From an uncultured Desulfobulbaceae bacterium (GTDB lineage: Bacteria > Desulfobacterota > Desulfobulbia > Desulfobulbales > Desulfobulbaceae): 64,000 nt of DNA. The DNA is taken from positions 1-64,000 of the forward strand of contig CAMYLK010000014.1 in the NCBI GenBank assembly GCA_947259225.1. Reading direction: 5' to 3'. A model generated the notes under the pieces. The model made no database searches and was not told the origin of the DNA. It saw only the letters and a program-made list of their open reading frames with translations. Both the position numbers and the translations under genes were made by a program. This document shows positions 16,868-50,336 of this stretch, piece after piece. How positions within the stretch are numbered: position 1 is the stretch's first letter; every line of letters begins with the position of its first letter.

Positions 16868-16962
16868 ACAGCTCTGATGGAAAAGCCTTGCCTATTCTAT
16901 AAAGCATCATTCCGGACTGAGCCAATCGAAGAACCGGAATCCAGATCACCGGAGCATATTAG

Positions 16963-16986
16963 ATTCCTGCGAAAGCAGGAATGACA
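16963..16986. repeat. Dispersed-type intergenic palindrome
   Basis: ATTCCTGC-GAAA-GCAGGAAT followed by GACAG is a compact hairpin (8-bp stem, GAAA loop). The motif resembles widespread intergenic repeats of the 'TGTCATTCCTGC' type. A related CATTCCGG/CCGGAAT pair precedes it at about 16907-16940. The rest of 16868-17142 shows no gene. Confidence 0.55.
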
Positions 16987-17142
16987 GAAAGTTCCTGATC
17001 TGTACATTTCACGCTCCATACCGTGAGGATCCTGCCCTCTCTCGGAGGTCGGCAGGACAGAAGAACACGAGTTCAGGGTGTCGTATAGGCCGGGTTATTA
17101 TAGAGCTGTTGAAAACTGATGGTAAGTAAAAAAAAGATCAGC

Positions 17143-17604: not shown

Positions 17605-17640
17605 AGATCAAACTCCTTAAATTTGAGATATAAAATTTAA

Positions 17641-19227: not shown

Positions 19228-19354
19228 GAAACACCTCGGGGAAACCTGATATTGTCTGATGAACAGAATGTACTATATTATATCATGTAAGAAAATGGCA
19301 AAATAACTGTTAAGTTAATGAATTATATCTTTTTTTCCTTTAAGGAGCAAATAC

Positions 19355-32742: not shown

Positions 32743-33630
32743 ATGAGTGCAAAAATTATTAGTGGAACTGAAACAGCAAAAGCTATTCGCGAAGAACTAA
32801 AAACCGAAGTTGATGACCTCAGGGAAAAACACAACATTACCCCCGGCCTGGTCACAATTCTAGTCGGGGAGGATCCGGCTTCCCAATCCTATGTTGCGGC
32901 AAAAAACAAAACCGCCCACGCCCTTGGCATTTATTCTGAGCAGTTAACACTTCCCGCGGAAACCAGCGAACAGGAGCTGCTTGAGCTGGTTGATAAATAT
33001 AATAAAGATCCGAAAATCCATGGTATCCTTGTTCAGCTGCCTTTACCAAAACATATTAATGAAGGTAAAGTCCTTTTTGCCATTGATCCAGACAAGGATG
33101 TGGACGGCTTCCATCCTGTCAATGTCGGCAAAATGATGGTTGGCGAGCAATGCTTTCTGCCATGCACTCCCCACGGAGTAATTGAGTTGATTCAACGCTC
33201 AGGTACAGAATCAAGTGGCGCCGAGGTTGTTGTTGTAGGCCGTTCAAATATTGTAGGCAAACCGGTTGCAAACCTCATGCTTCAGAAGCGTGATGGTGGT
33301 AACGCCACGGTCACCCTCTGCCACACCCGCACAAAAGATATGGACCTTCATACAAAACGTGCTGACATATTAATTGTTGCGGCTGGTGTCGCCAATATGA
33401 TCAAGGCGGATCAGGTGAAAGAAGGTGTGGTGGTTATTGACGTTGGTGTAAACCGCATCGGCATGTCGGATAGCGGCAAGGCTATTCTGGCTGGTGATGT
33501 AGAATTTGAATCGGTCAAGGAAAAAGCGGCAGCAATTACTCCGGTTCCCGGTGGTGTTGGTCCGATGACTATCACCATGCTCATGAAAAACACTGTCCAG
33601 TCAGCCAAACAGCATGCGGGCTTGGCATAA
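32743..33630 (+). CDS. folD: Methylene-THF dehydrogenase / methenyl-THF cyclohydrolase
   Basis: A 295-residue bifunctional enzyme interconverting 10-formyl-, methenyl- and methylene-tetrahydrofolate with NAD(P). FolD signatures: TPGLVTILVGEDPASQSYVAAKNKTA with catalytic Lys, GILVQLPLPKHI, DKDVDGFHPVNVGKM, and VVVGRSNIVGKPVANLM. SD AAGGAG is 6 nt before ATG. As first gene of the cluster with cooS, metF-acsD, acsB and acsC, it provides the C1 carrier chemistry of the Wood-Ljungdahl methyl branch. Confidence 0.96.
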   Translation: MSAKIISGTETAKAIREELKTEVDDLREKHNITPGLVTILVGEDPASQSYVAAKNKTAHALGIYSEQLTLPAETSEQELLELVDKYNKDPKIHGILVQLPLPKHINEGKVLFAIDPDKDVDGFHPVNVGKMMVGEQCFLPCTPHGVIELIQRSGTESSGAEVVVVGRSNIVGKPVANLMLQKRDGGNATVTLCHTRTKDMDLHTKRADILIVAAGVANMIKADQVKEGVVVIDVGVNRIGMSDSGKAILAGDVEFESVKEKAAAITPVPGGVGPMTITMLMKNTVQSAKQHAGLA

Positions 33631-33711
33631 TTTATATTTAAACAAGGAACCTGTACATAATCTTGCTGGTTACCGGTTCCATTATCTGACCACAGCTCAG
33701 GAGGCTACATT

Positions 33712-35709
33712 ATGGCCAAATCACATGGATGCGATAGTTGTAATGAAATAACAGGCGCATCAACCATTGACCTGTTGAATCAAGACTTGGCGAAAAAAGT
33801 AAGAACAGCATATGACCGGCTTGAAGATCGAGGCATGTCTGCCTGTCTTTTCGGTTCCGGAGGCACCTGCTGCAAGATATGCAACATGGGCCCATGCCAG
33901 ATTATAGACGATGTAGACCAGATGCTCGGTGTATGCGGAGCGACAGCTGATACAGTTGCCGCCAGGAATTTTGCACGCATAATTGCAGCCGGCACTGCTT
34001 CTCATACTGATCATGCGCGGGAGATGGTTCGTGGCTTCATAGCCACAGCCAAGGGAGAAACGCCTCACGAAATCAGAGACGTAGACAAACTCCATAAAAT
34101 GGCAGAACTGTTCGGCATTGAGACCGAGGGACGCGACAAGAACGAAATCGCCATAGAATTGGGTGAAAAGGCCCTGGCTGAGTTCGGCCAGCAGGAGGGC
34201 ACCCTGACTTTTCTTAAACGGGCTCCGAAAAAACAACAGGAGATCTGGAAAAAACTGGGAGTTGAGCCGCGTGGTGTTGATCGCGAAGTAGTTGAGATGA
34301 TGCACCGCACTCACATGGGTGTTGATCAGGAATATCATAACATTATGCTGCAAGGTGCCAGGTGTGCACTTGCTGACGGTTGGGGTTCATCCATGCTCTC
34401 CACCGAGCTGACAGATATCATGTTCGGCACACCCGTTCCCAAGCGGGCGATTGTTGATCTTGGCTGCCTGAAGGAAGACCACGTTAACGTGACGGTCCAC
34501 GGTCACGAACCACTTTTGGCTGAGTCCCTCTGCCTTGCTGCAGAGCAAGAGGATATTCTTGAACTGGCCAAAAAGGTTGGTGCCAAAGGTATCAACCTGG
34601 CCGGCGTCTGCTGTACAGGAAATGAAATTCTCATGCGCCGCGGTATACCAGTCGCCGGTTCCTTTATCCAGCAGGAGATGGTTCTTGCTACCGGTGCTGT
34701 TGAGGCCATGGTCGTTGACGTTCAGTGCGTCATGCAGTCTGTCGCCCAGGTTGTCAAGGAGATGCACACCGATATAATCACCACAAACTACCGTGCAAAA
34801 ATGCCTGATGCGATTCACATCCAGTTTGAAGAACATGATGCAATGAATTCCGCTAAAGAGATCCTGAAGAAGGCAATCGGTAACTACAAGAAACGCGGAG
34901 CACATTATATTCCTAAGGAAGATAAGTTTGACGTAGTAGTCGGCTTCAGTCACGAGACAGTCAATTACATGCTTGGCGGACGTTTTCGTGGATCTTATCG
35001 TCCCCTTAACGACAATATAATCAACGGTCGTATTAAGGGTGTAGGAGCCATAGTCGGTTGTGAACATTATAAATATGCGGATGACGTTCACTTTAAAATT
35101 GCTAAAGAGCTGATCAAGAACAATGTCCTGGTTCTTGCTACCGGCTGTGCGGCATCGGCTCTTGGTCGTCGTGGTCTGATGCGCCCGGAAGCAGCTGCAG
35201 AATATGCCGGTGCCGGTCTTGCTGAAGTCTGTGAAACTGTCGGCATCCCACCGGTTTTGCATGTAGGTTCCTGTGTTGACAACAGCCGTCTGCTGATTGC
35301 TCTGACCGAGATGGTTAATGAAGGCGGTCTTGGTGAGGACATTTCCGAACTTCCTGCCTGCGGTACTGCTCCTTTGTACATGTCTGAGAAAGCTGTGGCC
35401 ATTGGTCAATACTTTGTCAGTTCCGGAGCCCATGTTGTTTTCCAGAATCTTCCAACAGGTGGTGCTAAAAAGTTTAACGAGTTCCTTCTCGGAAGCATGA
35501 AAGAACTGTACGGCGCCAATTGGGCTGTGGAAGAAGACCCCATCAAGCTGGCCCAGCATATGATCAAGGCCATAGATGAAAAGCGTGAAGCACTAGGCAT
35601 CAACAAGAAACAAGAGCGTGTCCTGATGGATATGCAGATGCGCCGTGATCTCGAAGGCCAGGCTCTGCCAGGCACGGGATGCGGTGGAGAAGGGGATAGT
35701 CACGCGTAG
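33712..35709 (+). CDS. cooS: Carbon monoxide dehydrogenase catalytic subunit (Ni-Fe-S)
   Basis: A 665-residue homodimeric CO dehydrogenase subunit reducing CO2 to CO with low-potential ferredoxin. Residues Cys7/Cys10 suit the inter-subunit D-cluster; Cys45, 53, 54, 57 and 62 (ACLFGSGGTCCKICNMGPCQ) supply the B-cluster. C-cluster-type motifs follow (GVCCTGNEILMRRGIPVAG, DVQCVMQ, GCEHYKYADD, TGCAASALG, VGSCVDNSRLL). Length is typical of CooS/AcsA. It lies 81 nt after folD and is followed by metF-acsD, acsB and acsC, so it is the CO-making half of the CODH/ACS here. SD CAGGAGG is upstream of the ATG. Confidence 0.97.
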   Translation: MAKSHGCDSCNEITGASTIDLLNQDLAKKVRTAYDRLEDRGMSACLFGSGGTCCKICNMGPCQIIDDVDQMLGVCGATADTVAARNFARIIAAGTASHTDHAREMVRGFIATAKGETPHEIRDVDKLHKMAELFGIETEGRDKNEIAIELGEKALAEFGQQEGTLTFLKRAPKKQQEIWKKLGVEPRGVDREVVEMMHRTHMGVDQEYHNIMLQGARCALADGWGSSMLSTELTDIMFGTPVPKRAIVDLGCLKEDHVNVTVHGHEPLLAESLCLAAEQEDILELAKKVGAKGINLAGVCCTGNEILMRRGIPVAGSFIQQEMVLATGAVEAMVVDVQCVMQSVAQVVKEMHTDIITTNYRAKMPDAIHIQFEEHDAMNSAKEILKKAIGNYKKRGAHYIPKEDKFDVVVGFSHETVNYMLGGRFRGSYRPLNDNIINGRIKGVGAIVGCEHYKYADDVHFKIAKELIKNNVLVLATGCAASALGRRGLMRPEAAAEYAGAGLAEVCETVGIPPVLHVGSCVDNSRLLIALTEMVNEGGLGEDISELPACGTAPLYMSEKAVAIGQYFVSSGAHVVFQNLPTGGAKKFNEFLLGSMKELYGANWAVEEDPIKLAQHMIKAIDEKREALGINKKQERVLMDMQMRRDLEGQALPGTGCGGEGDSHA

Positions 35710-35793
35710 CTGACAGCCATGACTGTCTATTTCCAGTTGCGGTTATTTCTTGCCAGGGATTATACGACTGTAACTTGATATAATTTTATATAA

Positions 35794-35828
35794 AAGATAT
35801 GGATCGTTTTCATAGCGATCCATATCTT
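35794..35828 (+). promoter_or_regulatory. Perfect hairpin between cooS and metF-acsD
   Basis: AAGATATGGATCG (35794-35806) and CGATCCATATCTT (35816-35828) are exact reverse complements with a 9-nt loop. No T-run follows, so it is not a standard terminator. It sits 14 nt before the AAGGAGG ribosome binding site of metF-acsD and may be an mRNA processing or stabilising element, or a partial attenuator. Confidence 0.7.
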
Positions 35829-35852
35829 GAATTTGTTCATTAAGGAGGATTG

Positions 35853-38489
35853 ATGAAATCGGGGAGCAATCTTGAACGAGTGCTCACCAGCGGCAGTTTT
35901 GCCGTAACAGGTGAGCTCGGTCCGCCGAAAAACAGTGACCCGGATGTGGTCAGGAAAAAAGCACGGCTGTTAAAAGGCAACGTTGATGCAGTTAATATTA
36001 CCGACTGCCAGACTGCTATTGTCAGAATGTCGAGCATTGGAGCCGGACTGATAACCCAGTCAGAAGGGGTTGAGCCGGTCATCCAGATGACCTGCCGCGA
36101 CAGAAACAGAATCGGCATGCAAAGTGACCTGATGGCAGCATCGGCATTAGGTTTGAAAAATTTGTTATGCCTGACCGGTGATCACCAGAAATTTGGGAAT
36201 CATCCTGGATCCAAGGGCGTTTTTGACATGGATTCTATCCAGATGCTCGGTATGGTACGGGATATGCGGGACGAAAAAAAGTTCCAGTGCGGCGAGGAAA
36301 TTAAGGGGGCCGCTCCTAAACTTTTCATTGGTGCTGCAGCCAATCCCTTTGCCTATCCTTTTGAATTCCGTGCTGTCCGCCTTGGCAAGAAAATTGCCAA
36401 TGGTGCTGACTTTACTCAGACCCAGATTATCTACAATGTCGACAAATTCTCCAAATTCATGGAAATGTGCCGTGAGCTTGGTCTTGATGAGAAAGCATAT
36501 ATCCTTGCCGGTATTACACCTCCAAAATCTGTTGGCATGGCGAGATACATGAAAAATTTCGTTCCCGGCATGGATGTGCCCGACGAAATCATAAAGAGAA
36601 TGCAGGGCGCAAAAAACAAACCGCAGGAAGGTATCAATATAGCTGTTGATATTATCCAGCAGGTAAAAGAGATTAAGGGTGTTGCCGGCGTTCATGTAAT
36701 GGCCATCGAGTGGGAAGAAGCTGTTGAGGAAATTGTCGAAAAAGCCGGCCTCCTTCCCAGGCCGACATTCGACGAAGTTGAAACTAAAACAGTTTTAGTT
36801 CCTTCGGCTGAGGCCATAGTTGTCCGTGGTGAAGGAGATACTGATCTTGCTGAAGCAAAAACCGAGGCAGAACAAATCCTAGCTGCTGCCCGGCAGGAAG
36901 CCGAAACAATCAGGCAGCAGATTTCTGCTGGTCAGCCCGTTACAACAACATCACAATTAACAGATACAGTTGCCATTTCTACAGATGATGCAGGAGAACA
37001 TGAGATGAATGAAAAAGAGCGCCAATTGGCGTTGGATTCTGTAAAACAGGGACTCGATGCTTTAAAGAAGGCGTATGGTCTCAATGATGATCAATTCGAT
37101 GCGTTGATCAAGTTCATTGATGCGGAAGCTATTCTGAAAAAAGAACCGCCTGTATCAGGCGGAGTGCAGCCTGCCGCAGTACCTGAGGCCGCAACACCAG
37201 CAGCAGAACCCGTAACAGCACCACCTGCTGAAGACAAAGCTAAAGCTGAGGCAGAACAAAAAGCACAGGATGTAGCTGCTGCCAAAACTCAAGCTGAAGC
37301 AGTTGCCAAAGCCAAGGCCGAGGGCGATGCTAAAGCTGCTGCAGAGAAAAAGGCGAAAGAGGAGGCAGCCGTTAAAGCAGAGGCAGAGGCCAAAGCCAAA
37401 TCAGAAGCTGAAGCAAAAGCCAAGGCCGAGAAAGAGAAAGCCGAGCCCGAAAAACCAAAAGCCAAGGCACCAGCCAAAGCTGTTCCAGCTGAACTGGCAG
37501 CACCTGAACTGGCGCTGGAAAGCATTCCTTTTGCCGAGAGGGCTACCAAAGTGCCTGCGACTTCCTACAAGGTGGATTACAGCGGCGCTATCAGGGAAAC
37601 AGTTCTTGGAAACGGTGATAATACAATAACAGTCGGTGGATCAGAAGTAATGCCATTCCACCTGTTTGAAGGCAATATGCCTCGGAAACCGCTAATCGCC
37701 CTGGAAATTCAGGATGTCAAGCCTGACAACTGGCCGGATACTCTGACAAAATACTATGATGATGTTCTTGACAATCCTGTCGCCTGGGCCAAAAAATGTA
37801 TTGAAGAGTATAATGCCGACGCACTGAACATTTACCTGATTGGAACAGATCCTAACGGCGAGAACCGCCCTTCAGCAGATGCAGCAAAAGATGCTGCCGC
37901 AGTTATTGAAGCCGTTAATGTGCCGATCATTGTCTGGGGATGCGGGAACAATGAAAAGGACACCGAGACCCTGCGTGAGATAACCTCAATTATCGGCGAC
38001 AAAAAGGTTTGCCTGGCACCTCTTGAAGATGCCAACTACCGTTCAATCGGTGCAACTGCCATGGCATTCCAGCACCCCATGGTTGCTGCATCCCCCATTG
38101 ACGTCAATCTTGCCAAGCAGTTGAATATCCTTCTCGAAAATCTGGGAGTGCAACTTTCGACCGTAATGATGGATCCTTCGGTAGGCGCTCTTGGTTACGG
38201 AATAGAATACACATATTCGGTCATGGAAAGGATCCGGCTTGCCGCCTTGACCCAGAAGGATGAGAAGCTCCAGGTTCCGATCATCTGCAACCTTGGACGA
38301 GAAGTCTGGAAAACGAAGGAAGTCACCCTGGCATCAGATGAACTTCTCGGTGATCAGGAACAACGCGGCATTATGATGGAGGCGATGACCGCTAACTGTA
38401 TGCTTCTGTCCGGTGGTGAGGTTTTGATAATGCGCCACCCTAAAGCTGTGAACATGACAAAATCCCTGATCGAAGGCCTCATGGGCTGA
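35853..38489 (+). CDS. metF-acsD: MetF-AcsD fusion (methylene-THF reductase / corrinoid Fe-S protein small subunit)
   Basis: An 878-residue single frame. Residues about 1-300 are methylene-THF reductase (GELGPPKNSDPD, LLCLTGDHQKFGNHPGSKGVFDMDSIQ in parts, FTQTQIIYNVDKF). Residues about 385-560 are linker: a short helical piece beginning MNEKERQLALDS, then a long Ala/Lys/Glu-rich low-complexity stretch. Residues about 565-878 are AcsD/CdhD, the small corrinoid iron-sulfur protein subunit (VMPFHLFEGNMPRKPLIALE, DALNIYLIGTDPNG, MDPSVGALGYGIEYTYSVMERIR). Normally these are separate genes. Start is ATG at 35853 after AAGGAGG; TTG at 35850 is less likely. An internal start at 37005 may also be used. 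Confidence 0.9.
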   Translation: MKSGSNLERVLTSGSFAVTGELGPPKNSDPDVVRKKARLLKGNVDAVNITDCQTAIVRMSSIGAGLITQSEGVEPVIQMTCRDRNRIGMQSDLMAASALGLKNLLCLTGDHQKFGNHPGSKGVFDMDSIQMLGMVRDMRDEKKFQCGEEIKGAAPKLFIGAAANPFAYPFEFRAVRLGKKIANGADFTQTQIIYNVDKFSKFMEMCRELGLDEKAYILAGITPPKSVGMARYMKNFVPGMDVPDEIIKRMQGAKNKPQEGINIAVDIIQQVKEIKGVAGVHVMAIEWEEAVEEIVEKAGLLPRPTFDEVETKTVLVPSAEAIVVRGEGDTDLAEAKTEAEQILAAARQEAETIRQQISAGQPVTTTSQLTDTVAISTDDAGEHEMNEKERQLALDSVKQGLDALKKAYGLNDDQFDALIKFIDAEAILKKEPPVSGGVQPAAVPEAATPAAEPVTAPPAEDKAKAEAEQKAQDVAAAKTQAEAVAKAKAEGDAKAAAEKKAKEEAAVKAEAEAKAKSEAEAKAKAEKEKAEPEKPKAKAPAKAVPAELAAPELALESIPFAERATKVPATSYKVDYSGAIRETVLGNGDNTITVGGSEVMPFHLFEGNMPRKPLIALEIQDVKPDNWPDTLTKYYDDVLDNPVAWAKKCIEEYNADALNIYLIGTDPNGENRPSADAAKDAAAVIEAVNVPIIVWGCGNNEKDTETLREITSIIGDKKVCLAPLEDANYRSIGATAMAFQHPMVAASPIDVNLAKQLNILLENLGVQLSTVMMDPSVGALGYGIEYTYSVMERIRLAALTQKDEKLQVPIICNLGREVWKTKEVTLASDELLGDQEQRGIMMEAMTANCMLLSGGEVLIMRHPKAVNMTKSLIEGLMG
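36991..37007 (+). promoter_or_regulatory. Possible internal ribosome binding site and start within metF-acsD
   Basis: CAGGAG (36991-36996) lies 8 nt before an in-frame ATG at 37005. Initiation there would give a 494-residue AcsD with the linker as its N-terminal extension, beginning MNEKERQLALDSVKQG. The SD quality and spacing are good, but no experiment is implied. Confidence 0.5.
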
Positions 38490-38547
38490 TCAGTGATAAT
38501 ATACATAGAAATCAAAAGAGTAGAAATATAACAAGGGAGTTTTTTCA

Positions 38548-40755
38548 ATGTCGAAGATCATTTGTTCAGCAGCTATTCGCGGTGCCAAGAATATCATTGA
38601 CATGGCTGAAGAGACCTATGAAGAGGCCATAAAAAAATATGGCCCGGATCAGGAGGTTTCTTTTCCAAATACAGCCTATTTTCTGCCAATCATTTATTCC
38701 ATGCTTGGAGCCAAGGTGGAAAAACTTGGCGACATGAAGGACATCTTTCAGGAGTGTCGCACTCTTCTGCCACCAGTGGTAGCCGGAGATATCTGGCTAC
38801 CATACCTGGCACCGGCACTTGATGCAGGTATGGCAACATTTTTCGCCGAAGAAATGTACGAGTCCATTCGTTACCTGAATGACCCGAATTTCTATACAAA
38901 AACAGAAGACCCAACCGCGGAAAACATTTGGCTTGGTGCAGCTGATGACGTCATCTTCAGGAAACGAGGTGTTGAGTTTGTCGACGGAACAGCACCTGGC
39001 TTTGCAGCCATCATGGGGGCGCCACCAAACAAAGAGATTGCCAGCAAGATTGCACTGGAACTCCAGGAGAAAAACCTATACATTTTTATGCACGATGAGA
39101 CAAATGGTGTCAAGATGCCAGACCTGCTTGTCGAAAATGATGTTCAGGTAGGTTGGAGCACCCGTCTGGTTCCATTCGGACCGACATACACCTCCGCTGT
39201 TTTTGCCATTGGTTTTGCCTGCCGAGTCGCCATGGCATTCGGTGGCATAAAACCAGGTGATTACAATGGCAATCTGATCTACAACAAGGATCGTACTTTT
39301 GCCTTTGTCATGGCGTTCGGTCCAGTCAGTGACGAATGGTATGCCAACGCAGCCGGTGCTATCAACTGGGGATTCCCGACAATTTCCGATTACGATATAC
39401 CTGAGGTGCTTCCTACAGGTATCTGTACATACGAACATGTTGTATCCAATGTGCCACACGAAGAAATCGTCCAGAAAGCCATTGAAGTACGTGGGCTTAA
39501 GGTTTCCGTTACCAAGATCGACATCCCCATGTCTTTCGGTCCCGCTTTCGAGGGTGAACGTATCCGAAAGGACGACCTGTTCATGGAATGCGGAGGAGGT
39601 CGGACAACGGGCGTTGAGGTTCTTGTTTCAAAGGAAATGGACGAGGTCGAGGATGGCAAGGTTATTCTCGAAGGCCCGGATATTTCTGATATCGAAGAAG
39701 GACAGAACCTGCCGATCGCTATCCTTGTAGAGGTTGCAGGGCGTGAAATGCAGTCTGACTTTGAACCTATCCTGGAACGCCAGTTTCACCACCTGATCAA
39801 CTACGTCCAGGGCATCATGCATATCGGCCAGCGAAATATTATGTGGATTCGCATAGGCAAAGCTGCCGTTGAGAAAGGATTTTCTTTTAAACATATCGGA
39901 ACAGTCTTGCACGGTAAGCTACACCAGGAGTTCGGTGCCATTCTCGACAAGATTCAGGTAAAAATTTACACAGAGCAGGAAAAGGTTGATGAAGTAGTGG
40001 ATCTTGCCAGGACGGTTTATGAGGAACGTGACCTGCGCCTCGGTTCCATGACAGACGAAACTGAAGAAGTTTTCTACTCCTGTACCCTATGCCAGTCTTT
40101 TGCTCCAAGCCATGTATGTGTCATTACTCCCGAGCGTATCGGCATGTGCGGCGCATATAACTGGCTGGACGGCAAGGCCTCATTTCAGATCAATCCGACC
40201 GGACCCAATCAGCCCATCGATAAGGGTGAATGTACGGATGAAATCAATGGCTATTTCACAGGTATTAACGATTTCGTTAACCAGGCCTCCAGGGGAGCTG
40301 TCAGCGAGGTAAGCTGCTATTCGCTCATGAACAACCCCATGACCGCATGTGGGTGTTTTGAGTCAATCGCTGCAATGCTGCCTGCCTGTAATGGCATCAT
40401 GGTTGTCAACCGTGACTATATGGGAATGACGCCTTCTGGCATGAAGTTCACTACCCTGGCCGGTATGGCTGGCGGCGGCATGCAGACCCCGGGTTTCATG
40501 GGTGTGTCCAAGCATTATATGACAAGCCCTAAACTTTTCCTGGCCGAGGGCGGACTTAAGAGGCTTGTCTGGATACCCAAGATACTTAAAGATGAGATTG
40601 CTGACAAACTCAAGGCCCGTTGTGAAGAGATCGGAATGCCTGAACTATTTGATATGATTGCTACGGAAGAGCAGGGAACTACAGAAGAAGAGATCCTTGC
40701 TTTCCTTAAAGAAAAAGGTCATCCGGCACTTGAAATGGAAACAGAATTAGGCTGA
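38548..40755 (+). CDS. acsB: Acetyl-CoA synthase catalytic subunit
   Basis: A 735-residue acetyl-CoA synthase that joins CO, a methyl group from the corrinoid protein, and CoA. A-cluster ligands are clear: Cys512, 515, 524 and 534 (CTLCQSFAPSHVC...MCGAY) bind the [4Fe-4S], and Cys601-Gly-Cys603 (TACGCFE) bind the distal Ni. N-terminal ferredoxin- and CODH-binding region and the middle domain are intact. SD AAGGGAG is 11 nt before ATG. It is flanked by acsD-bearing and acsC genes, 59 and 77 nt away. Confidence 0.97.
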   Translation: MSKIICSAAIRGAKNIIDMAEETYEEAIKKYGPDQEVSFPNTAYFLPIIYSMLGAKVEKLGDMKDIFQECRTLLPPVVAGDIWLPYLAPALDAGMATFFAEEMYESIRYLNDPNFYTKTEDPTAENIWLGAADDVIFRKRGVEFVDGTAPGFAAIMGAPPNKEIASKIALELQEKNLYIFMHDETNGVKMPDLLVENDVQVGWSTRLVPFGPTYTSAVFAIGFACRVAMAFGGIKPGDYNGNLIYNKDRTFAFVMAFGPVSDEWYANAAGAINWGFPTISDYDIPEVLPTGICTYEHVVSNVPHEEIVQKAIEVRGLKVSVTKIDIPMSFGPAFEGERIRKDDLFMECGGGRTTGVEVLVSKEMDEVEDGKVILEGPDISDIEEGQNLPIAILVEVAGREMQSDFEPILERQFHHLINYVQGIMHIGQRNIMWIRIGKAAVEKGFSFKHIGTVLHGKLHQEFGAILDKIQVKIYTEQEKVDEVVDLARTVYEERDLRLGSMTDETEEVFYSCTLCQSFAPSHVCVITPERIGMCGAYNWLDGKASFQINPTGPNQPIDKGECTDEINGYFTGINDFVNQASRGAVSEVSCYSLMNNPMTACGCFESIAAMLPACNGIMVVNRDYMGMTPSGMKFTTLAGMAGGGMQTPGFMGVSKHYMTSPKLFLAEGGLKRLVWIPKILKDEIADKLKARCEEIGMPELFDMIATEEQGTTEEEILAFLKEKGHPALEMETELG

Positions 40756-40831
40756 TCACGTAAAGAAAGGCAGAATAACCAACTGATTCAGGGCTCTGCC
40801 TTGGATATATGCTCTAAGGAGGAATCTAACA

Positions 40832-42184
40832 ATGGCGTTAACCGGTATACAGATATTAAAAATGCTGCCGAAAACGAATTGCGGTGATTGCAGCATCCCG
40901 ACATGTCTTGCTTTTGCCATGAAGGTGGCAGCCGGTCAGGTAGAGATTGATGCTTGCCCGCATGTCAGTGATGAGGCAAAAGAGACAATTGGCGAAGCCT
41001 CGGCACCTCCGATCAGGACAATCAAAATGGGTAGTGGAGACGCCGAATTTACTGCCGGTGGCGAAACGTGCCTGTTCAGACACGAAAAAAGATTTGAAAA
41101 TCCGACCGGTATAGCTGTAATGGTCTCCACCGGCGATAATGAAAAGACTGTTGACGCCAAAATCGAACGCTTTAACAAACTTGAGTACGAACGTGTCGGT
41201 GTCTTGATGCGTGCTGATCTGATTGTGGTTAAGGATAACGACGGCAACGGAGATGCCTTCACAGGTTTAACCCAGAAAGTTCTGGAAAAGTCTCCCGGAG
41301 CAGCAGTCGTACTGATGACTGACAGTGCTGATAACATGAAGGCTGCGGCTGCTGCGTGCGGTGACCGCAAACCTCTTCTTTTTGGAGCTAACGCAGACAA
41401 TTGGCAGGCTATGGGTGAACTGGCCAAGGAAATCGGGTGTCCGCTTGGAGTTCAGGGCAAAACCCTTGATGATCTGGTCGAAATTTCCGGCAACCTTGTT
41501 GAAGCAGGACATAAGGACCTCGTTATTGATTCCGGTGCAAGAACTCTGCGCGGAGCTTTTGAGGATAATGTCGTGTCCCGCCGTTCCGCCATCAAGGAAA
41601 AATTCAAACCACTTGGTTTTCCGACCATAACTTTTCCCTGTGAAATGACTGACGACCCGATGATGGAAGCCATGATTGCTTCTGTACTGATGGCAAAATA
41701 TGCCGGTATTGTTGTTCTCTCAGACCTACAGGGTGAGGTGCTTTTCCCCCTGCTGCTTGAACAGCTCAATATTTTCACCGATCCTCAGCGGCCCATGGTT
41801 GTCGAGGAAGATATTTATCCTCTTGGTGGACCCGGCGAAGATTCACCTGTTCTTATTACCTGTAACTTCTCGCTTACTTATTTCATTGTTTCAGGCGAAA
41901 TAGAGGGTTCGAAGGTTCCGTCATGGCTGTTGATAAAGGACACTGAAGGATTGTCTGTTCTTACCGCCTGGGCGGCTGGAAAATTCGGGGCGGATCTGAT
42001 AGCTCAATTTGTAAACAAATCAGGGATAGGCGACAAAGTAAAACACCGCGAATTGATCATACCGGGATATCTGGCAACGATCAAAGGTGAACTCGAGGAG
42101 GAGCTTCCCGACTGGACTATAACAATTGGTCCTCGTGAAGCGGGTCATCTGCCGGCATTCCTCAAGGAATGGCAGCCTGCTTAA
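40832..42184 (+). CDS. acsC: Corrinoid iron-sulfur protein large subunit
   Basis: A 450-residue CoFeSP gamma subunit that carries the cobamide and passes the methyl group to AcsB. The N-terminal [4Fe-4S] ligands are Cys17, 20, 25 and 42 (KTNCGDCSIPTCLAF, ACPHV), followed by a TIM-barrel and a C-terminal corrinoid-binding Rossmann-like domain (DLIAQFVNKSGIG, IIPGYLATIKGELEEELPDWTI in parts). SD AAGGAGG is upstream of ATG. Its methyl donor AcsE is not encoded in this window. Confidence 0.96.
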   Translation: MALTGIQILKMLPKTNCGDCSIPTCLAFAMKVAAGQVEIDACPHVSDEAKETIGEASAPPIRTIKMGSGDAEFTAGGETCLFRHEKRFENPTGIAVMVSTGDNEKTVDAKIERFNKLEYERVGVLMRADLIVVKDNDGNGDAFTGLTQKVLEKSPGAAVVLMTDSADNMKAAAAACGDRKPLLFGANADNWQAMGELAKEIGCPLGVQGKTLDDLVEISGNLVEAGHKDLVIDSGARTLRGAFEDNVVSRRSAIKEKFKPLGFPTITFPCEMTDDPMMEAMIASVLMAKYAGIVVLSDLQGEVLFPLLLEQLNIFTDPQRPMVVEEDIYPLGGPGEDSPVLITCNFSLTYFIVSGEIEGSKVPSWLLIKDTEGLSVLTAWAAGKFGADLIAQFVNKSGIGDKVKHRELIIPGYLATIKGELEEELPDWTITIGPREAGHLPAFLKEWQPA

Positions 42185-42249
42185 TAATGTCACTTAAATA
42201 GAGCGGGGAAGTTGTAAGCTTTTGTTTTTTTTCCTGCTCAACTGAATAT

Positions 42250-45200
42250 ATGTCAACAGTCACATTAATCATAGACGGTAACGAGATAGTTGCCGAAAAG
42301 AATCTGACAATCCTCGAGGTGGCCAAGCGTTCAGGTATAACCATACCTACACTTTGCTACGTCAAAGGAAAGCCTACTGACAAGCCATGTAATATCTGCG
42401 TGGTTGAGATAGCTGATCATGCAAAGCACACCATATCTTCCAACCTGAAAGTCGAAGGTTTGTACCGGGCATGCACGACACTTGCTTTGGACAGTATGGA
42501 TATCAGAACTGCCAGTGAAAATGTAATTGCATTCCGCCAGGACCGACTTGCAGCTATCTCCAAGACACATTTCGGCGATTGCAAAGCGCCGTGCAACCTG
42601 ACATGTCCCGGCCAGATAAATGTCCAGGGATATATTGCCCATGTCGCTCGAGGAGAGTACGAAGAAGCGCTTCGCCTTGTTATGGAACGCAACCCGGTTC
42701 CTTTTTCCGTCGGCCGTGTATGCCCGCGGTTTTGTGAAACACGCTGCCGCCGAATCCTTGTTGACGAGCCGGTTTCCATAAATCATCTCAAACGTTTTGT
42801 CGCAGACTGGTGCATGACTCACGAAATAAACCTGAGTATCCCGCGTGATAAACCTACCGGTAAGCGAATTGCAGTCATTGGCGGTGGTCCTTCAGGATTA
42901 TCCGCTGCATACTTCCTGACCAGAAAAGGCCATGATGTCACCATTCTCGAAGCAGCATCGAAGCTCGGAGGTGCGCTGCGTTATGGTTTTCCAGAGTACA
43001 AGATCCCAAAGGATGTGCTGGATTACGAGGTCAATTCCATCCTGAAAATGGGTATCTCTATTCGGCTGAATCAGAAATGGGGTAAAGATTTTACTATTCA
43101 GGACCTTCATGACCAGGGATTTAACGCAACATTTATTGGCATCGGGGCCAATGTGGACGAACCGCTTGAAATCCCCTGTTCCGAAAAACCGCACGTATAC
43201 CCTGCCACTAAGTTTCTTCGTTTAATAAACGAAGGCAAGGATATCGAATTCGGAAAAAGTGCAGCTGTCATCGGTGGCAATAATACAGCTATGGAAGTTG
43301 CCAGAAGCCTTGTGAGAATGGGCGTGGAGGATGTTACAATCATTTACCCGCGGGCCAAGATAGAAATGCCTGCTCATCAGAGAAACATCCGTGAAGCCGA
43401 AAATGACGGCATTCAATTCCTGCTGATGGCTTCGCCTACCGAAATTTGCGGTAAGTCCCCCGAAGAAAGTCGCCTCAAACTTGATCTGATACGAATGAAA
43501 CTGGGCGAACCTGACAAACGAGGTCGCAGGGAACCCTTACCCATCCCCGGTTCCAACACCAGTATGTATGTAGATACCATTGTTTCCTCTCTTGGTCAGA
43601 CTGCGGTAAAGGAACATATTGATGGGGGAGAAATCGAGTCGCAGATTCAGCTTTCACCCAAGTGCACCATAGTTGCAAACCCTCGTTCTTCTCAGACCAG
43701 TGTTGAAGGTGTGTTTGCAGGTGGTGATGCAGTGACAGGACCAAAATCTGTCATCCAGGCAGTTGTATCTGCACGTCGTGCAGCATCAAATATCCATGCA
43801 TTTGTAATGGGTGAAGAAAAAGAGCCCGCTGAAAGTCGTTTCAATTTTACCCGCGGCAAGTCTTTCGACGATGTGGATTCAAAGAATTTTGAAGACGTCA
43901 GTGAAAAAATGCGCGAAAAAATGCCTGAGCGGTTACCTGAAACAGCTGTCCAGGATTTCGACGAGGTAAAACTCGGTTTTACTGAGAAAATGGCCCGCCG
44001 TGAAGCAGATCGATGTCTGTCATGCGGGTGTACAGCGTTCGAACGGTGCGACCTTAAACGCCATGATATAGAAAACAACATTAATATCAATAAAACAGGT
44101 ATGGGAGTCAAGCCGCTTTACAAGGTAGACAACTCTCATCCTGCCATAACAGTTGATCCCAATAAGTGTATATTCTGTTTTCGCTGTGTACGTTATTGTG
44201 AGTATGACGCCCTGGAACTGAGAGCCAAGAAAGTGGTCGGAGCAGGTTATCCCTTTGGTGTTGAGATCAAGTTCAAGGACAATTGTGTTTCCTGTGGGAA
44301 ATGCGTGGAATATTGTTCTACAGGGGCTTTGAACAAGAAAAACCGGATCGTTCCCATCCAGTCGGAAGAAGTAAAAACGATTAAGAGCACGTGTCCCTAT
44401 TGCGGTACCGGATGTCAATTAGAGATCAAGGTCAAGGGGAATACTGTGATGGAAATCGGTGCTGACCTCGACCAGATGCCGAATTTTGGTGACCTCTGTG
44501 TTAAGGGCCGTTTTGGTCACAACTTCATTCAACATCCAGATCGTTTGAAAACACCCCTGATACGCCGCCAGAAAAGTGGTGCTCTTGAGCCGGCAAGCTG
44601 GGCTGAGGCTCTTGACTTTATCGCTGTCAAGTTCAGAAGGATACTCGAGGACAAGGGGCCCGATGCCTTGGCAGGATTGTCTTCGGCACGATGCACCAAT
44701 GAAGAGAATTATGCTTTCCAGAAATTTTTCCGGGCCGGTATAGGGACAAATAATATCGATCATTGTGCCCGTTACTGACACAGTCCTACGGTGGCCGGTC
44801 TGGCCACAGCATTCGGATCTGGAGCAATGAGCAACAACATTGCCGGTATAGTGGATAACGATGTTCTTTTTGTTATTGGTTCCAATACGACGGAGACACA
44901 CCCGGTAATAGCACTACGCATGCTGGAAGCCGTCAAACGTGGAGCCAAATTGATTGTAGCCGATCCGCGACACATAAAACTCGCAGACAGTGCTGTTATC
45001 CGGCTCAATCACCGTCCGGGTACAGATGCTGCGTTAATCAATGCAATGTGCCATGTCATCCTGAACGAGGGTATGACAGATCAGAAGTTTATAGAAAAAC
45101 ATACGGAAGGTTTTGAAGCATTTTCCAGTGCTGTTGTTGACTGTACCCCTGAGTGGGCAGAAAAAATTACCGGGGTACCGGCAGCGGACATAATCGAGGC

Positions 45201-46500
45201 ATCTAAACTATTTGCCGGCGCAGAACGTGCAGGTACCTATTACACCATGGGCATAACGCAACATACATCTGGTACTTCCAATGTTTTGGCTTTGGCAAAC
45301 CTGGTACTCGCTACAGGAAATCTTGGGAAGCCTGGCGCTGGCCTCAATCCATTACGTGGTCAAAACAATGTCCAGGGTGCCAGTGACATGGGCTGTAACC
45401 CGGTCAATCTGCCCGGTTACCAGAGGGTTGACAACGAGGATGCCAGAAAACGTATCGGCGGGATATGGGGGCAGGAGCCCAAAGCTGAGCCGGGTTTGAC
45501 AGCTACAGAAATGACTCCTGCCATTGTTGATGGCGCGATCGCTGGTTTGTGGATAATGGGTGAAAATCCAGTCATGAGCGACCCCAACATGTCTCATGTC
45601 CGTGAAGCATTTGAGAAGCTTGATTTCCTCCTGGTGCAGGACATTTTCCTGACCGAAACGGCTGAGATGGCTGATGTTGTTCTTCCAGCTGCCTCTTTTG
45701 CAGAAAAAAACGGTACCTTTACAAATACAGAACGCAGGGTACAGAGAATTCGCAGAGCTGTTAGGCCTCCTGGAGAGGCCCGAGACGACTTGACCATCGT
45801 AAACCTCGTAACAGCCCGCATGGGTTATGATCATATTGTTCCTTTGTCCCAGGGATTTACCAACCGCTTGTATAACGAAGGTGGATTCGTGACAGCACCA
45901 CCGCTCTGTGATGAAGTATATGAAGAAATGGGTAAAGTCTGGCCGGCAATAGCCGGTATCAATTATGACCGCCTTGAAGATCAGGGATTACAGTGGCCAT
46001 GTCCTGATGAGAACCATCCCGGCACACCTGTTCTGTTTGAAAATGGATTTCCGATTGGTAAAGCAAAATTTTCTTCGGTAGAATGGAAAGGACCGCAGGA
46101 GATGCCAGATGAAGAGTTTCCTTTGTACCTCTCCACCGGAAGGGTACTCGCCCAGTATCATACCGGTACCATGACACGTCGGTCCCGTATACTTGAAGAT
46201 GTGGACAACGGTCCGTATGTTGAGATCAATCCTCAGGATGCTGAGACACTTGGCATCAAGAATGGTGATAATGTAAGGGCTGTCTCACGCAGAGGAAACA
46301 TCACAATACCAGCAATGCTTACAGAACGTGTTAACAGTGGGATGGTATTTATACCCTTTCATTACCATGAAGCTGCGGCTAACCTGTTGACCAATGATGC
46401 CCTGGATCCGGTTTGCAAGATTCCTGAGGCCAAAGTGTGTGCAGTACGGCTGGAAAAGATCACGGGTGATTTAAATATAGTTGAGGTTGATCATAAATAA
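42250..46500 (+). CDS. fdhA: Selenocysteine formate dehydrogenase fused to NuoG-like and GltD-like modules
   Basis: A 1416-residue protein if TGA at 44776-44778 is read as selenocysteine (U843). Order: [2Fe-2S] domain (LCYVKG...KPCNICVVEI), GltD-like flavoprotein with CKAPCNLTCPGQINVQGYIA, GGGPSGLSAAYFL and IGGNNTAMEVARSLV (FAD and NAD(P)H sites), two [4Fe-4S] sites (Cys640 CIFCFRCVRYC; Cys679 CVSCGKCVEYC), then FdhA from Cys715 (CPYCGTGC). The UGA lies in HCARY-U-HSPTVAGL, matching the Sec site of formate dehydrogenases. It likely interconverts CO2 and formate with NAD(P)H and/or ferredoxin. Frames 42250-44778 and 44779-46500 are in phase. No good SD precedes ATG. Confidence 0.93.
44776..44807 (+). 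promoter_or_regulatory. SECIS element of fdhA with UGA-Sec codon
   Basis: UGA at 44776-44778 is followed after 12 nt by a perfect stem GTGGCC (44791-44796) / GGCCAC (44802-44807) closing a GGTCT loop. Spacing and the GGUCU apical loop match the known E. coli fdhF SECIS closely. The SelB-binding element lies inside the coding sequence. Confidence 0.9.
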
Positions 46501-46610
46501 TTATTTTTTTAATTATTTGTATTCCGTTAGAAGATTTTCCGCATTTTCAATGTGAAATAGAGCTGAAAATCATCATTCAAGAGAAGTAATTCTTTAACCT
46601 GGAGATTGAA

Positions 46611-49600
46611 ATGGGAAAAGGAATGGAACACAGGGCCGGATCAGTCATGGTCGTTGGCGGAGGCATTGCCGGTGTACAGGCTGCGCTCGACCTGACAGAA
46701 CTGGGCTACTATGTCTATCTGGTTGAAAAGGAAGCCGTTGTGGGCGGAGTCATGGCCCAGCTTGACAAAACCTTTCCAACGAACGACTGCTCGCTCTGAA
46801 TTCTCGCGCCAAAACTGGTAGAGGCCGGTCGGTCTCCAAACATCGAGATGCTCACCAATGCAGATTTCCTGTCATTGGATGGTAAACCAGGCGATTTTAC
46901 AGCTAAAATCAGGCTGCGTCCCCGTTATATTGATGCTGACAACTGCACGGCATGCGGACTCTGCACACAGTATTGTCCGCGGCACCACGTGGATGAATAC
47001 AACGAAGGCTTGTCACTTACACGCCCGATACATATAGACTATGCCCAGGCTGTACCGGCAACGTATTATATTGATCCGGGTTCGTGCCTCCATCTGCAGC
47101 ATGACACCTGCCAGATATGTGTACCGGTATGCCAAAGCCATGCCATTAACTTTGACCAGAAACCTGAAGAACTTGATCTCAAGGTAGGTGCAGTAATTCT
47201 GTCACCGGGATTTGGGAAGATTTCTGAAGAAACACTTGAGAAATACGGATACAATAAACATCCTGATATTGTTACCAGCATCGAGTTTGAACGCATGACC
47301 ACAGCATCAGGTCCGTTTATGGGTGAAGTGAAATGCTTTTCCGACGGTCGTCATCCAAAACGGATGGCCTTTATTCAGTGTGTCGGTTCCCGCGACCTTG
47401 GATGTGACAACGGCTACTGTTCATCGGTGTGCTGCATGTATTCTATCAAGGAAGCTCTGGTCGCCAAGGAACATGATCCTGAAGTAGATATCACTATTTA
47501 CTATATGGATATCCGTACCCAGGGCAAAGAATTCGACAAGGCTCGCGAGCGCGCCGAATCCATGGGTATCAAGTTTGTCAGGGCAAAGGTTGCAGACGTA
47601 ACTCCCTGGGAGAATCGGTTGCAGTTGACCTTTTCCACCCTGAATGCCAAGCATGTTTTTGAGCCTTATGACATGGTAGTACTGTCGGTAGGCCTGGAGT
47701 CACCGCGTGACGCACAGGGTATAGCAGAAAAAGCAGGTATCGAACTGAATAACTATGATTTCTGCAAGACCGGGACCTTTTCACCATTGGCAACAACACG
47801 GGATGGTGTCATTGTTGCCGGAGCTTTCCAGGGACCAAAAGATATCCCTGAAAGCGTTACCCAAGCTACCGCGGCTGCAGGCATTGCTGCAGGTATGCTT
47901 GCCAAACAACGGGGGCAGGGAGTTATCCATAAATCTTATCCTGACGAACAGCCCTTTGACGATGAAATCAGGATTGGTGTGTTTGTCTGCCACTGCGGCA
48001 TTAATATCAGTTCAGTCGTAGATGTAAAAAATGTTGAAGATTCGACTGAGGGTATGGAAGGCGTCGTCTATCATACTGACAGTCTCTATTCCTGCTCTCA
48101 GGATGCCCAGGAAGTTCTTAAAGATAAAATTAAGGAACACGACCTGAACAGGGTTGTAATCGCTGCCTGTTCTCCTCGGACCCACGAGCCACTCTTTCAG
48201 GAAACACTTAAAGACGCAGGGCTCAACCGGAGCCTGATTGAAATGGTCAACATTCGCGATCAATGCTCATGGGTTCATGCCGCTGAACCTGAGGCTGCCA
48301 CTGATAAATCCAGGGATCTCGTCCGTATGGCGGTTGCCAAGGCGCGTGGCATGAAACCCCTGCCCGAACAGACTGTTCCGGTGACCCCGAAAACTTTGAT
48401 CATCGGCAGCGGAATCGCCGGCATGACAGCAGCCATGTCTCTTGCCGAGCAAGGTTTTGAGTGTTTGCTTCTTGAGAAGGGGAAAACGCTTGGCGGCAAT
48501 CTAGGCCTGCTGAACCATACATTGGATCAGGAAGAAACAGGGAAACACCTGAAACAGCTCGTTGCCAAAGTAAAAAGGAACAAGAAAATCAATGTGGCTA
48601 CAGAAGCTGAACTTACTTCTATATCCGGCTTTATAGGAAACTATGCCTCAGTTATAGCTACGGGCTCTGGCAAGAAAAAGACCGAGCAGACTTTTGATCA
48701 TGGAACGGTTGTTCTTGCCACCGGTGGTCATGAACATCGCCCTGAAGGATATCTGCTTGACAAGAGCAACAAGGTTGTCACCCAGTTGGAACTTGAGAAA
48801 CGTTTGGCCGGTAAAGCCAAGAATCGGGCTCCAGGAACTGTTGTTATGATTCAATGCGCCGGTTCCCGGGGAGATGATCTTAACTACTGTTCCAAAGTCT
48901 GTTGTAATCATGCGGTAAAAAACGCTCTTAAAATTAAAGAAATTAATCCAGATGCGCGTGTTATTGTCCTGTATCGTGACATGCGGACGTATGGTTATGC
49001 CGAAGACGCGTATCGTGATGCACGTCTCAAGGGAGTCATCTTTATACCATATGAAATGGACAACAAGCCTGAACTCTCTGAAAAAGGGCGGAATCTGCGT
49101 GTCAAATTTTTTGACTCCATCATGCAGGAGGAAATGGATATAACACCTGACCTCGTAGCTTTATCCGTAGGCATAGTACCTGACAGCACTGAGGAGTTGA
49201 GCAAACTGCTCAAAGCACCGTTGACTGATGACAAATTCTTCCTCGAAGCCCATGTTAAGCTTCGGCCGGTTGAACTGCCTGTAGACGGGATGTATGTGTG
49301 CGGTCTTGCCCATGGTCCCAAGCCCCTTGATGAAACTATTTCACAGGCTCAGGCTGCGGCAGCCAAGGCCGCGCAGCCTCTTGTCAAGGGTTGCGTGTCT
49401 GTAGCTCCCATTGTTTCGAGTGTTGATCAGGAACAATGCATCGGCTGCAGCTTGTGTGCAAGCCTCTGCCCATTCAAGGCTATAGAAATGATAAAAGTTG
49501 ACAAGAAACGCAAAGCACAGACAATAGCCGCTTCCTGCAAAGCATGCGGTATCTGTGCCAGCCACTGCCCGAGTTTTGCAATTTCCATGGGTGGGTTTAC

Positions 49601-49673
49601 CAACGAACAGATCAATTCCCAGATAAGCGCCTTTGGCGATGTCAGTGAAAAAGAAACTGCTGAGGTATCATAA
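46611..49673 (+). CDS. hdrA: Selenocysteine HdrA-like iron-sulfur flavoprotein, double-length
   Basis: A 1020-residue protein with TGA at 46797-46799 read as U63 in [19 protein letters not shown]; the family has Cys here. The N-terminal half has [17 protein letters not shown] (FAD) and [4Fe-4S] ligands from Cys112 ([11 protein letters not shown]). A second HdrA-type half starts near residue 450 ([18 protein letters not shown]) with its own FAD motif ([16 protein letters not shown]). C-terminal ferredoxin sites start at Cys943 ([11 protein letters not shown]) and Cys976 ([11 protein letters not shown]). HdrA is the flavin-based electron-bifurcating subunit. HdrB and HdrC are absent. SD CTGGAG precedes ATG. 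MvhD follows with a 1-nt overlap. Confidence 0.92.
46797..46836 (+). promoter_or_regulatory. SECIS-like hairpin of hdrA with UGA-Sec codon
   Basis: UGA at 46797-46799; GAGGCC (46821-46826) pairs with GGTCTC (46831-46836) including one G-U pair around a GGTC loop. The loop begins 27 nt after the UGA, longer than in fdhF, but within the range I recall for bacterial SECIS elements. Confidence 0.7.
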
Positions 49674-50272
49674 TGAGTGAACAATACAATCCCAGAATAC
49701 TGGGTTTTCTCTGTAACTGGTGCTGCTATGCAGCTGCAGACGCTGCGGGCGTTTCACGTTTTCAGTATCCGCCCAATCTGCGTACCATACGTGTCATGTG
49801 TACGGGAAGGGTTGATCCGGCTTTTATCATGCGTGGATTTCTCGAAGGAGCAGATGGTATTTTTACCGGCGGCTGACAACTTGGCGAATGTCATTACCAG
49901 GTTGGTAATTATGATGCGATGGGTATGAACGCTATGGTTCATAACGTTTTAAAGGAAATTGGTATCCGCGAAGAGCGGTATAACCTCCAGTGGGCATCAG
50001 CTGCGGAAGCACCGCGCTTTGTACAGCTGATCACCGAGTTTACCCAAAAGATGAAAGAACTGGGGCCCCTTGGTAAAGCAGAAGGGATGAGCCAGGAAGA
50101 ACTTAAGGAACGACTTGAGAAAGGGCTGGCGGTTGTCAGTGACCAGAAAGTAAGGGTCAGCTTCGGTAATGCCACCAAGGCTGTCCGCAAAGATGGTATA
50201 TGGACGCACGAACATATCGGCGAGTTAATTACCACAAAGATGGCGAAAACCATGGACAAGGTTTTCGCCTAG
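49673..50272 (+). CDS. mvhD: Selenocysteine MvhD-like electron-transfer subunit
   Basis: A 199-residue protein with TGA at 49874-49876 read as U68. N-terminus PRILGFLCNWCCYAAADAAG is the MvhD signature; TIRVMCTGRVDPAFIMRGF follows. The UGA stands in FTGG-U-QLGECHY, where most homologues have CGCHPGDCHY, so Sec replaces a probable cluster-ligand Cys and the preceding Cys is Gly. MvhD passes electrons to HdrA. A C-terminal tail of about 60 residues exceeds the usual 140-residue MvhD. Its ATG overlaps the hdrA stop by 1 nt (TAATG), so the two are translationally coupled; no hydrogenase genes are adjacent. Confidence 0.92.
49874..49909 (+). promoter_or_regulatory. SECIS element of mvhD with UGA-Sec codon
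   Basis: UGA at 49874-49876 is followed after 16 nt by ATTACC (49893-49898) / GGTAAT (49904-49909), a perfect 6-bp stem around the loop AGGTT. The loop carries GGU, as in the two upstream selenoprotein genes. Confidence 0.85.
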
Positions 50273-50299: not shown

Positions 50300-50336
50300 A
50301 ACCCAGCGTCCAATTTCCGGAAGCTGGGTTTTTTTT
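50300..50336 (+). terminator. Rho-independent terminator of the Wood-Ljungdahl operon
   Basis: AACCCAGC (50300-50307) pairs with GCTGGGTT (50323-50330) over a 15-nt loop, followed by a run of T (to 50336). It lies 28 nt after the mvhD stop. It ends the plus-strand operon and faces the end of the minus-strand pfk. Confidence 0.88.

What the first reader, a model, noticed from the sequence alone, without database searches (positions are those of the whole stretch)
42250..50272. Three consecutive selenoprotein genes, each with its own SECIS hairpin
fdhA, hdrA and mvhD each contain exactly one in-frame TGA, at residues 843, 63 and 68, and in each case the frame on both sides of it is in phase and family-conserved. 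Hairpins with a GGU-containing loop follow each TGA (GGUCU, GGUC, AGGUU). The same three families are selenoproteins in some methanogens (FdhA, HdrA, VhuD), although archaeal SECIS elements lie in the 3' UTR. An automated annotation would break the operon into six pieces and lose hdrA's N-terminus.
Basis: partly seen in the sequence, partly recalled or inferred. Interest (0 to 1): 0.82.

Follow-up and report, generated by a model that had tools for sequence, protein, structure and literature searches.

The report
Selenium-using formate/Hdr enzyme operon

Summary
The finding holds. fdhA, hdrA and mvhD (42250-50272) each carry one in-frame TGA at codons 843, 63 and 68, followed by the hairpins described. 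Of 38 loci (window included) where all three sites could be read, 35 have TGA at all three; the other three have Cys in fdhA only. The hairpins behave as bacterial SECIS elements. The hdrA one is identical to the base in 42 of 42 loci, silent positions included. The fdhA one keeps 114 of 114 pairs through compensating changes in 19 sequences. More distant hdrA copies with TGA have a SECIS-type hairpin in 17 of 19 cases, copies with Cys in 0 of 21. selA, selB and a TGA-containing selD are present. selC is not in this incomplete assembly, but the six other genomes of its genus that were searched have it. glyQ, beside selC in five of those six, is missing here too, so an assembly gap is likely. 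The operon closes a Wood-Ljungdahl cluster in Desulfobulbales. Its layout is published for Desulfurivibrio dismutans, and Sec forms of all three families for related sulfate reducers. Verdict: correct, well supported, ordinary biology; a new member of a known kind.

The parts
42250..46500 (+). fdhA: fused NAD(P)H-site (2Fe-2S, Fer4_20, GltD-like) and formate dehydrogenase catalytic domain, 1416 aa with Sec843
44776..44778 (+). Sec codon TGA (U843) of fdhA
   Evidence: TGA in 41 and Cys in 3 of 44 readable loci
44791..44807 (+). SECIS apical hairpin of fdhA, loop GGUCU
   Evidence: (Rfam SECIS_3, 44.1 bits, below gathering 63)
46611..49673 (+). hdrA: long HdrA with two FAD modules, 1020 aa with Sec63
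46797..46799 (+). Sec codon TGA (U63) of hdrA
   Evidence: TGA in 42 of 42 readable loci
46821..46836 (+). SECIS apical hairpin of hdrA, loop GGUC
49673..50272 (+). mvhD (FlpD/FrhD family), 199 aa with Sec68; its ATG overlaps the hdrA stop by one base
49874..49876 (+). Sec codon TGA (U68) of mvhD
   Evidence: TGA in 39 of 39 readable loci
49893..49909 (+). SECIS apical hairpin of mvhD, loop AGGUU
32743..33630 (+). folD, methyl branch (context)
33712..35709 (+). CO dehydrogenase catalytic subunit (context)
35850..38489 (+). MetF-like domain fused to CFeSP small subunit AcsD (context)
38548..40755 (+). acetyl-CoA synthase AcsB (context)
40832..42184 (+). CFeSP large subunit AcsC (context)
50316..50336 (+). 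possible terminator (short stem then T run) after mvhD
   Evidence: pattern match only

Best explanation
A bacterial selenoprotein operon in a Desulfobulbales bacterium. SelB with Sec-tRNA(Sec) binds the hairpin just after each UGA and inserts Sec into FdhA (metal-site ligand, from known formate dehydrogenases), HdrA (the position of Cys197 in chain 5odc_A) and MvhD (the position of Cys67 in chain 5odc_D). [quoted passage not shown] Shown here: TGA conservation, SECIS conservation, sel genes except selC, domains, gene context. Inferred: actual Sec insertion, the complex, electron bifurcation or confurcation, its direction and its partners.
For: TGA at all three sites in 35 of 38 loci, window included, with all sites readable. 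hdrA codons +8 to +12 identical in 42 of 42 sequences; only 7 of 530 amino-acid-conserved degenerate columns in that gene are invariant. mvhD: 5 of 89 such columns invariant, all within the hairpin stretch. fdhA ARY type: 114 of 114 pairs in 19 sequences (9 distinct) with compensating changes, 0 of 1000 synonymous permutations as good. SECIS-type hairpin in 17 of 19 TGA versus 0 of 21 Cys hdrA homologues; six of six pairs in 7 of 8 TGA versus 1 of 41 Cys mvhD homologues. selA, selB, selD over cut-off, selD itself with a TGA. U63 and U843 align with residues printed X in chains 9sfi_A and 9t1s_L.
Against: selC was not found in this assembly. The mvhD stem is weak (-4.5 kcal/mol) and misses the published -7.5 limit on my stem-only measure, as do all 39 mvhD loci and 16 of 41 fdhA TGA loci. 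Rfam finds only the fdhA element, below its gathering score. The relatives compared are related to one another, so counts are not independent. I saw no protein or translation data for this organism.
Confidence: 0.95

Rival explanations
1. The TGAs are true stops: three genes split or decayed, or the UGA is read through as another amino acid.
For: selC is missing from the assembly.
Against: The same three codons are TGA in most loci compared across an order while both sides of each stay open and conserved. A silent-site-conserved hairpin follows hdrA and mvhD, a covarying one fdhA, and in hdrA and mvhD homologues it is mostly absent where the codon is Cys.
Confidence: 0.02
2. Sec was used until recently, but this strain lost selC and the operon is now broken.
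For: No tRNA-Sec found in G000 by covariance model or by DNA match.
Against: The selA and selB matches have no stop inside and selD only one TGA. glyQ is missing as well, and a glyQ-like frame sits beside selC in five of six genus neighbourhoods listed.
Confidence: 0.03
3. Sec is inserted, but the three proteins do not form one complex; HdrA-MvhD instead serve DsrC/sulfur electron flow, close to what is proposed for D. dismutans.
For: The D. dismutans authors propose electrons from DsrC trisulfide through HdrL to FdhAB (PMC12142623 passages).
Against: Gene order, a one-base overlap of hdrA and mvhD, and the Fdh-VhuD-Hdr association reported for Methanococcus (PMC6019823 passages) suggest a joint complex; this does not exclude sulfur-linked electrons.
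Confidence: 0.3

Closest known systems
FdhAB-HdrA/HdrL-MvhD genes beside the Wood-Ljungdahl genes in Desulfurivibrio dismutans AMeS2 (PMC12142623, passages)
   Same: Fused FdhAB, HdrA with two NADH/FAD-binding domains, MvhD, next to WLP genes; similarly expressed there
   Different: No word beginning with 'seleno' occurs in the main text held; I did not look at its sequence
Sec-containing HdrA1/A2, HdrL1/L3, MvhD1/2/3/5 and FdhA of Desulfobacterium autotrophicum HRM2 (PMC2702500, passages)
   Same: All three families are Sec proteins there, with hdr next to mvhD
   Different: The passages I saw do not place fdhA, hdrA and mvhD together in one WLP operon
glpC-hdrA-frhD-frhG-frhA selenoprotein operons of Syntrophobacter fumaroxidans (PMC1794560, passages)
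   Same: Neighbouring selenoprotein genes that include HdrA and FrhD (=MvhD)
   Different: Hydrogenase partner (FrhA), not a fused formate dehydrogenase
HdrBCA-MvhD-FdhBA with a Sec FdhA in deep-sea Chloroflexi and, in similar layout, Desulfobacula toluolica (PMC5736913, passages)
   Same: FdhA, HdrA and MvhD in one cluster, FdhA with Sec
   Different: HdrBC and a separate FdhB present; the passage names Sec for FdhA only
Vhu/Fdh-Hdr complexes of Methanococcus maripaludis (PMC6019823, passages)
   Same: Fdh donates electrons through VhuD to Hdr
   Different: HdrBC and heterodisulfide present; archaeal SECIS, mostly in the 3' UTR
Type II HdrA of methane-metabolizing archaea (PMC12054007, passages)
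   Same: Second thioredoxin-reductase (FAD) domain; 14% of the type II genes lie with hdrBC, mvhD, fdhB and a molybdopterin oxidoreductase gene
   Different: Archaeal; the order of modules was not compared here
22 selenoprotein genes in Desulfolithobacter dissulfuricans GF1 (PMC12013277, one table passage)
   Same: G010 has the same genome size (3,596,428 bp) and holds this trio with all three TGA (L092)
   Different: The table passage gives counts, not the genes

Membership tests
Bacterial selenoprotein genes | In-frame UGA at a position where homologues have Cys or Sec, both sides conserved | tested here: met
Bacterial selenoprotein genes | SECIS just downstream: stem 4-16 bp, loop 3-9 nt, G in first two loop positions, 16-37 nt from UGA, MFE <= -7.5 | tested here: inconclusive
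   Geometry met by all three (loop at 18, 27, and 22 or 23 nt). Energy met by fdhA (-10.1) and hdrA (-7.7), not by mvhD (-4.5), on a stem-only measure that may differ from the published one. Conservation strongly supports all three
Sec decoding trait | selA, selB, selD in the genome | tested here: met
Sec decoding trait | selC (tRNA-Sec) in the genome | tested here: inconclusive
   Not found in G000. In one search, 24 of 27 genomes have a match of 67 bits or more, all six other genus members among them; the tally of 25 over the cut-off includes G014, whose hit is tRNA-Ser. glyQ also missing from G000
Sec decoding trait | Sec shown in the protein | not testable with these tools
   needs 75Se or mass spectrometry
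FdhA / HdrA / FlpD-MvhD protein families | Family profile match | tested here: met
   FdhA over cut-off (TIGR01591 802.7 vs 666.25); FlpD PF02662 166.1 vs 22.3; HdrA best NCBIfam profile NF040770 961.5, under its cut-off of 1100, with modules in another order than the methanogen HdrA
Electron-bifurcating HdrABC complex | HdrB and HdrC partners | tested here: inconclusive
   The eight large genes from 32743 to 50272 are all assigned otherwise. CCG-domain (HdrB-type) matches elsewhere in G000 lie in three larger frames of 413, 558 and 549 aa, not identified further; HdrC was not searched for

The most novel reading that the evidence does not exclude
A lineage-wide triple-selenium formate dehydrogenase-HdrA-MvhD module in Desulfobulbales in which the HdrA and MvhD selenium sites are locked in (0 Cys of 42 and of 39), while FdhA can switch to Cys (3 of 44, with the SECIS-type hairpin kept in two). 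This would make the little-tested roles of Sec in HdrA and MvhD testable in cultured relatives. The counts are too small to show the difference by themselves.
Probability: 0.3. Interest if true: 0.4.

Novelty: new member of a known kind. Interest (0 to 1): 0.22.

Why it matters
The locus shows selenium use across one electron-transfer module of an ancient CO2-fixing pathway, kept in most loci compared through an order. Annotations that ignore Sec would break all three genes. The strict silent-site conservation gives clean SECIS examples, and natural Sec/Cys pairs of homologues give a ready test set. It does not change what is known of the families.

Tried and rejected
Single-sequence hairpin stability as proof was rejected: many other codons do as well, above all in mvhD. 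Rfam at gathering score found nothing in the window; with a lax E-value only SECIS_3 at fdhA was believable, the other five listed matches being unrelated families with E 4.8 to 9.9. Eight of the 14 RF01852 matches in G000 were checked (loci L009-L016): they are ordinary Trp, Ser, Tyr, Leu and Gly tRNAs, so selC was not claimed; the six weaker ones were not checked. A pairing test in the window's fdhA register is of little use for the ARL/HAP type of FdhA, which uses another register (135 of 150 pairs, 39 of 1000 permutations as good). The same test is uninformative for hdrA and mvhD, whose stems never vary in the order. Structure prediction was not run, because it would not bear on Sec insertion.

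Selection and drops: of the 128 of 146 genomes with a match, I fetched 40 stretches, favouring long, high-identity fdhA hits, so the trio's conservation is conditional on having this fdhA; 18 of 146 genomes had no match at that cut-off (E 1e-150), 10 of them from one genus of the family. L058 has a run of N over the fdhA site. hdrA was not found in the fetched stretch of L079-L081, nor mvhD in L066, L079-L082 and L085. Several of the remaining loci are close relatives, so counts are not independent. For one search I fetched 20 listed matches with one TGA (one of them also with a TAA) and 20 with no stop; one of the former (L107) has Cys at the site and is counted as Cys. The two TGA copies that miss the limit (L106, L109) score -7.3. 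For one search the 49 loci were L142-L170, laid, plus 20 more without a stop; with five or more pairs as the bar the split is 8 of 8 TGA and 8 of 41 Cys.
Full report
What is there. Three genes in one direction, 42250-50272, follow a Wood-Ljungdahl cluster (folD, CO dehydrogenase, a MetF-AcsD fusion, acsB, acsC). Read with TGA as Sec they are fdhA (1416 aa, U843), hdrA (1020 aa, U63) and mvhD (199 aa, U68), each with exactly one TGA. Table 11 gives six fragments. FdhA carries a 2Fe-2S domain, Fer4_20 and a GltD-like flavin/NAD(P)H region before the catalytic part. Its N-terminal half matches the solved chain named NfnA (9n5u_A, query residues 4-756). HdrA has two flavin modules: against the methanogen HdrA 5odc_A, residues 12-330 match chain 146-460, 451-603 match chain 2-154, and 827-1007 match chain 467-648. 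HdrA with a second such domain is called type II in archaea (PMC12054007, passages); I did not compare the module order. MvhD is FlpD, PF02662.

The organism. G000 is a 4.28 Mb assembly in 288 contigs, 93.29% complete, 5.02% contaminated. G010, of the same family, has the genome size of Desulfolithobacter dissulfuricans GF1 (3,596,428), which is placed in Desulfobulbales. Both identifications rest on equal lengths.

Are the TGAs conserved? In 45 loci (46 fetched plus the window, two duplicates dropped), the fdhA site could be read in 44 (41 TGA, 3 Cys), hdrA in 42 (all TGA), mvhD in 39 (all TGA). All three were readable in 38, the window among them, and all three are TGA in 35 of these. The exceptions L061 (same genus, TGC), L072 and L099 (TGT) have Cys in FdhA only. 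In L061 and L072 a hairpin meeting the SECIS limits persists, in L099 it does not reach the energy limit; this suggests recent Sec-to-Cys changes in the first two.

Are the hairpins SECIS elements? Single-sequence stability alone says little: 7 of 1416, 29 of 1020 and 45 of 199 codons of the same genes are followed by as good a hairpin. Conservation says much. In hdrA, codons +8 to +12 (GAG GCC GGT CGG TCT) are identical in 42 of 42 sequences, though A, G, R and S have four to six codons; in the whole gene only 7 of 530 amino-acid-conserved degenerate columns are invariant. In mvhD, 5 of 89 are, all in the hairpin stretch. In fdhA genes of the ARY/HSP type the stem changes with compensation (GTGGCC/GGCCAC, GTGACC/GGTCAC, GTTGCA/TGCAAC, GTGGTC/GACCAC): 114 of 114 pairs in 19 sequences (9 distinct), and 0 of 1000 permutations of synonymous codons within columns reach this (mean 0.911). 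Two of those 19 are the Cys forms L061 and L072. The 25 genes of the ARL/HAP type use another register and give no such result in this one (135 of 150 pairs). Rfam SECIS_3 matches at 44773-44831 with 44.1 bits, under its gathering score of 63; no SECIS family matched at hdrA or mvhD.

Controls from other lineages of the phylum. For hdrA, 40 of the listed homologues were fetched: of 19 with TGA at the site, 17 have a hairpin meeting the published geometry and -7.5 kcal/mol; of 21 with Cys, none has. For mvhD, 49 homologues: of 8 with TGA at the site, 7 have all six pairs in the window's register; of 41 with Cys, 1 has. The hairpin thus goes with the TGA more than with the protein sequence. No such control was run for fdhA.

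Machinery. selB, selA and selD score over their cut-offs, and selD has one TGA of its own. selC did not reach its cut-off, the eight best hits are other tRNAs, and a DNA search with the selC of L042 found nothing (best E 1.27). All six other genomes of the genus have a match of 70 bits or more, and ARAGORN calls all six tRNA-SeC; of the 11 loci given to it, nine are tRNA-SeC, L046 is Ser and L047 Trp. I listed the reading frames around selC in those six: a glyQ-like frame, named from its sequence by eye, lies next to selC in five (L026, L028, L037, L039, L042); in the sixth (L036) the frame there looked different. glyQ is likewise absent from G000 (that family is found in 7 of 14 control genomes, so it is not universal). 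The simplest reading is a missing stretch of assembly.

What it does. U63 aligns with Cys197 of 5odc_A and with a residue printed X in 9sfi_A; U68 with Cys67 of 5odc_D; U843 with a residue printed X in 9t1s_L, a formate dehydrogenase. That X stands for Sec is my reading. By analogy with methanogens, where Fdh passes electrons through VhuD to Hdr (PMC6019823, passages), I propose a complex linking CO2/formate, NAD(P)H and ferredoxin for the methyl branch. No hdrB or hdrC lies among the eight genes assigned in this cluster; CCG domains of the HdrB kind occur elsewhere in the genome in three frames of 413 to 558 aa that I did not identify. The partner reactions are therefore open. The D. dismutans authors describe the same three genes beside the WLP genes, similarly expressed, and suggest sulfur-derived electrons (PMC12142623, passages).

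What is known. Sec forms of FdhA, HdrA and FrhD/MvhD in Deltaproteobacteria were reported by 2006 (PMC1794560, passages), are listed for D. autotrophicum (PMC2702500, passages) and D. multivorans (PMC5109826, passages), and selenoprotein operons with hdrA and frhD are reviewed (PMC13188914, passages and section 5). Searches around this fdhA-hdrA-mvhD Sec trio (open-licence papers only) showed no paper that describes it in the titles and passages I saw; 11 papers were opened by passages in all, and most listed papers were not opened. So the arrangement may be undescribed as a Sec trio, but each element is known.

Verdict. Observation confirmed, interpretation supported, low surprise. The useful additions are the controls and the conservation through the order.

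Noticed in passing
L150, L152, L153, L155, L159, L161-L164, L168: In 10 of 49 MvhD homologues elsewhere in the phylum the in-frame TGA lies at the position of window residue 17 (CNW-U) while codon 68 is Cys: two alternative Sec positions in one small Fe-S protein.
   Followed up: partly
window 35850-38489: One 879-aa frame joins a MetF-like domain, an Ala/Lys/Glu-rich linker and the CFeSP small subunit AcsD; it is matched end to end in L054-L059, 6 of the 46 loci searched, the six that were fetched with a long upstream flank.
   Followed up: partly
L061, L072, L099: fdhA has Cys (TGC/TGT) instead of Sec while hdrA and mvhD keep TGA; L061 is from the window's own genus.
   Followed up: partly
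L092 around 1615: fdhA of the genome whose size equals D. dissulfuricans GF1 changes frame near residue 367 in a G/C-rich run; sequencing error or real.
   Followed up: no
G000:C33: A second fdhA with one TGA (16932-19271) lies about 5 kb downstream of selB on the same contig.
   Followed up: no
window 19355-19981: A DUF166 protein in an ordinary frame without TGA; DUF166 is listed among Sec proteins in another deltaproteobacterium (PMC8318568 passage).
   Followed up: no
window 56854-59124, minus strand: A radical-SAM lysine-2,3-aminomutase-like gene directly next to a D-ala-D-ala-ligase-like ATP-grasp gene; perhaps a small beta-amino-acid pathway.
   Followed up: no
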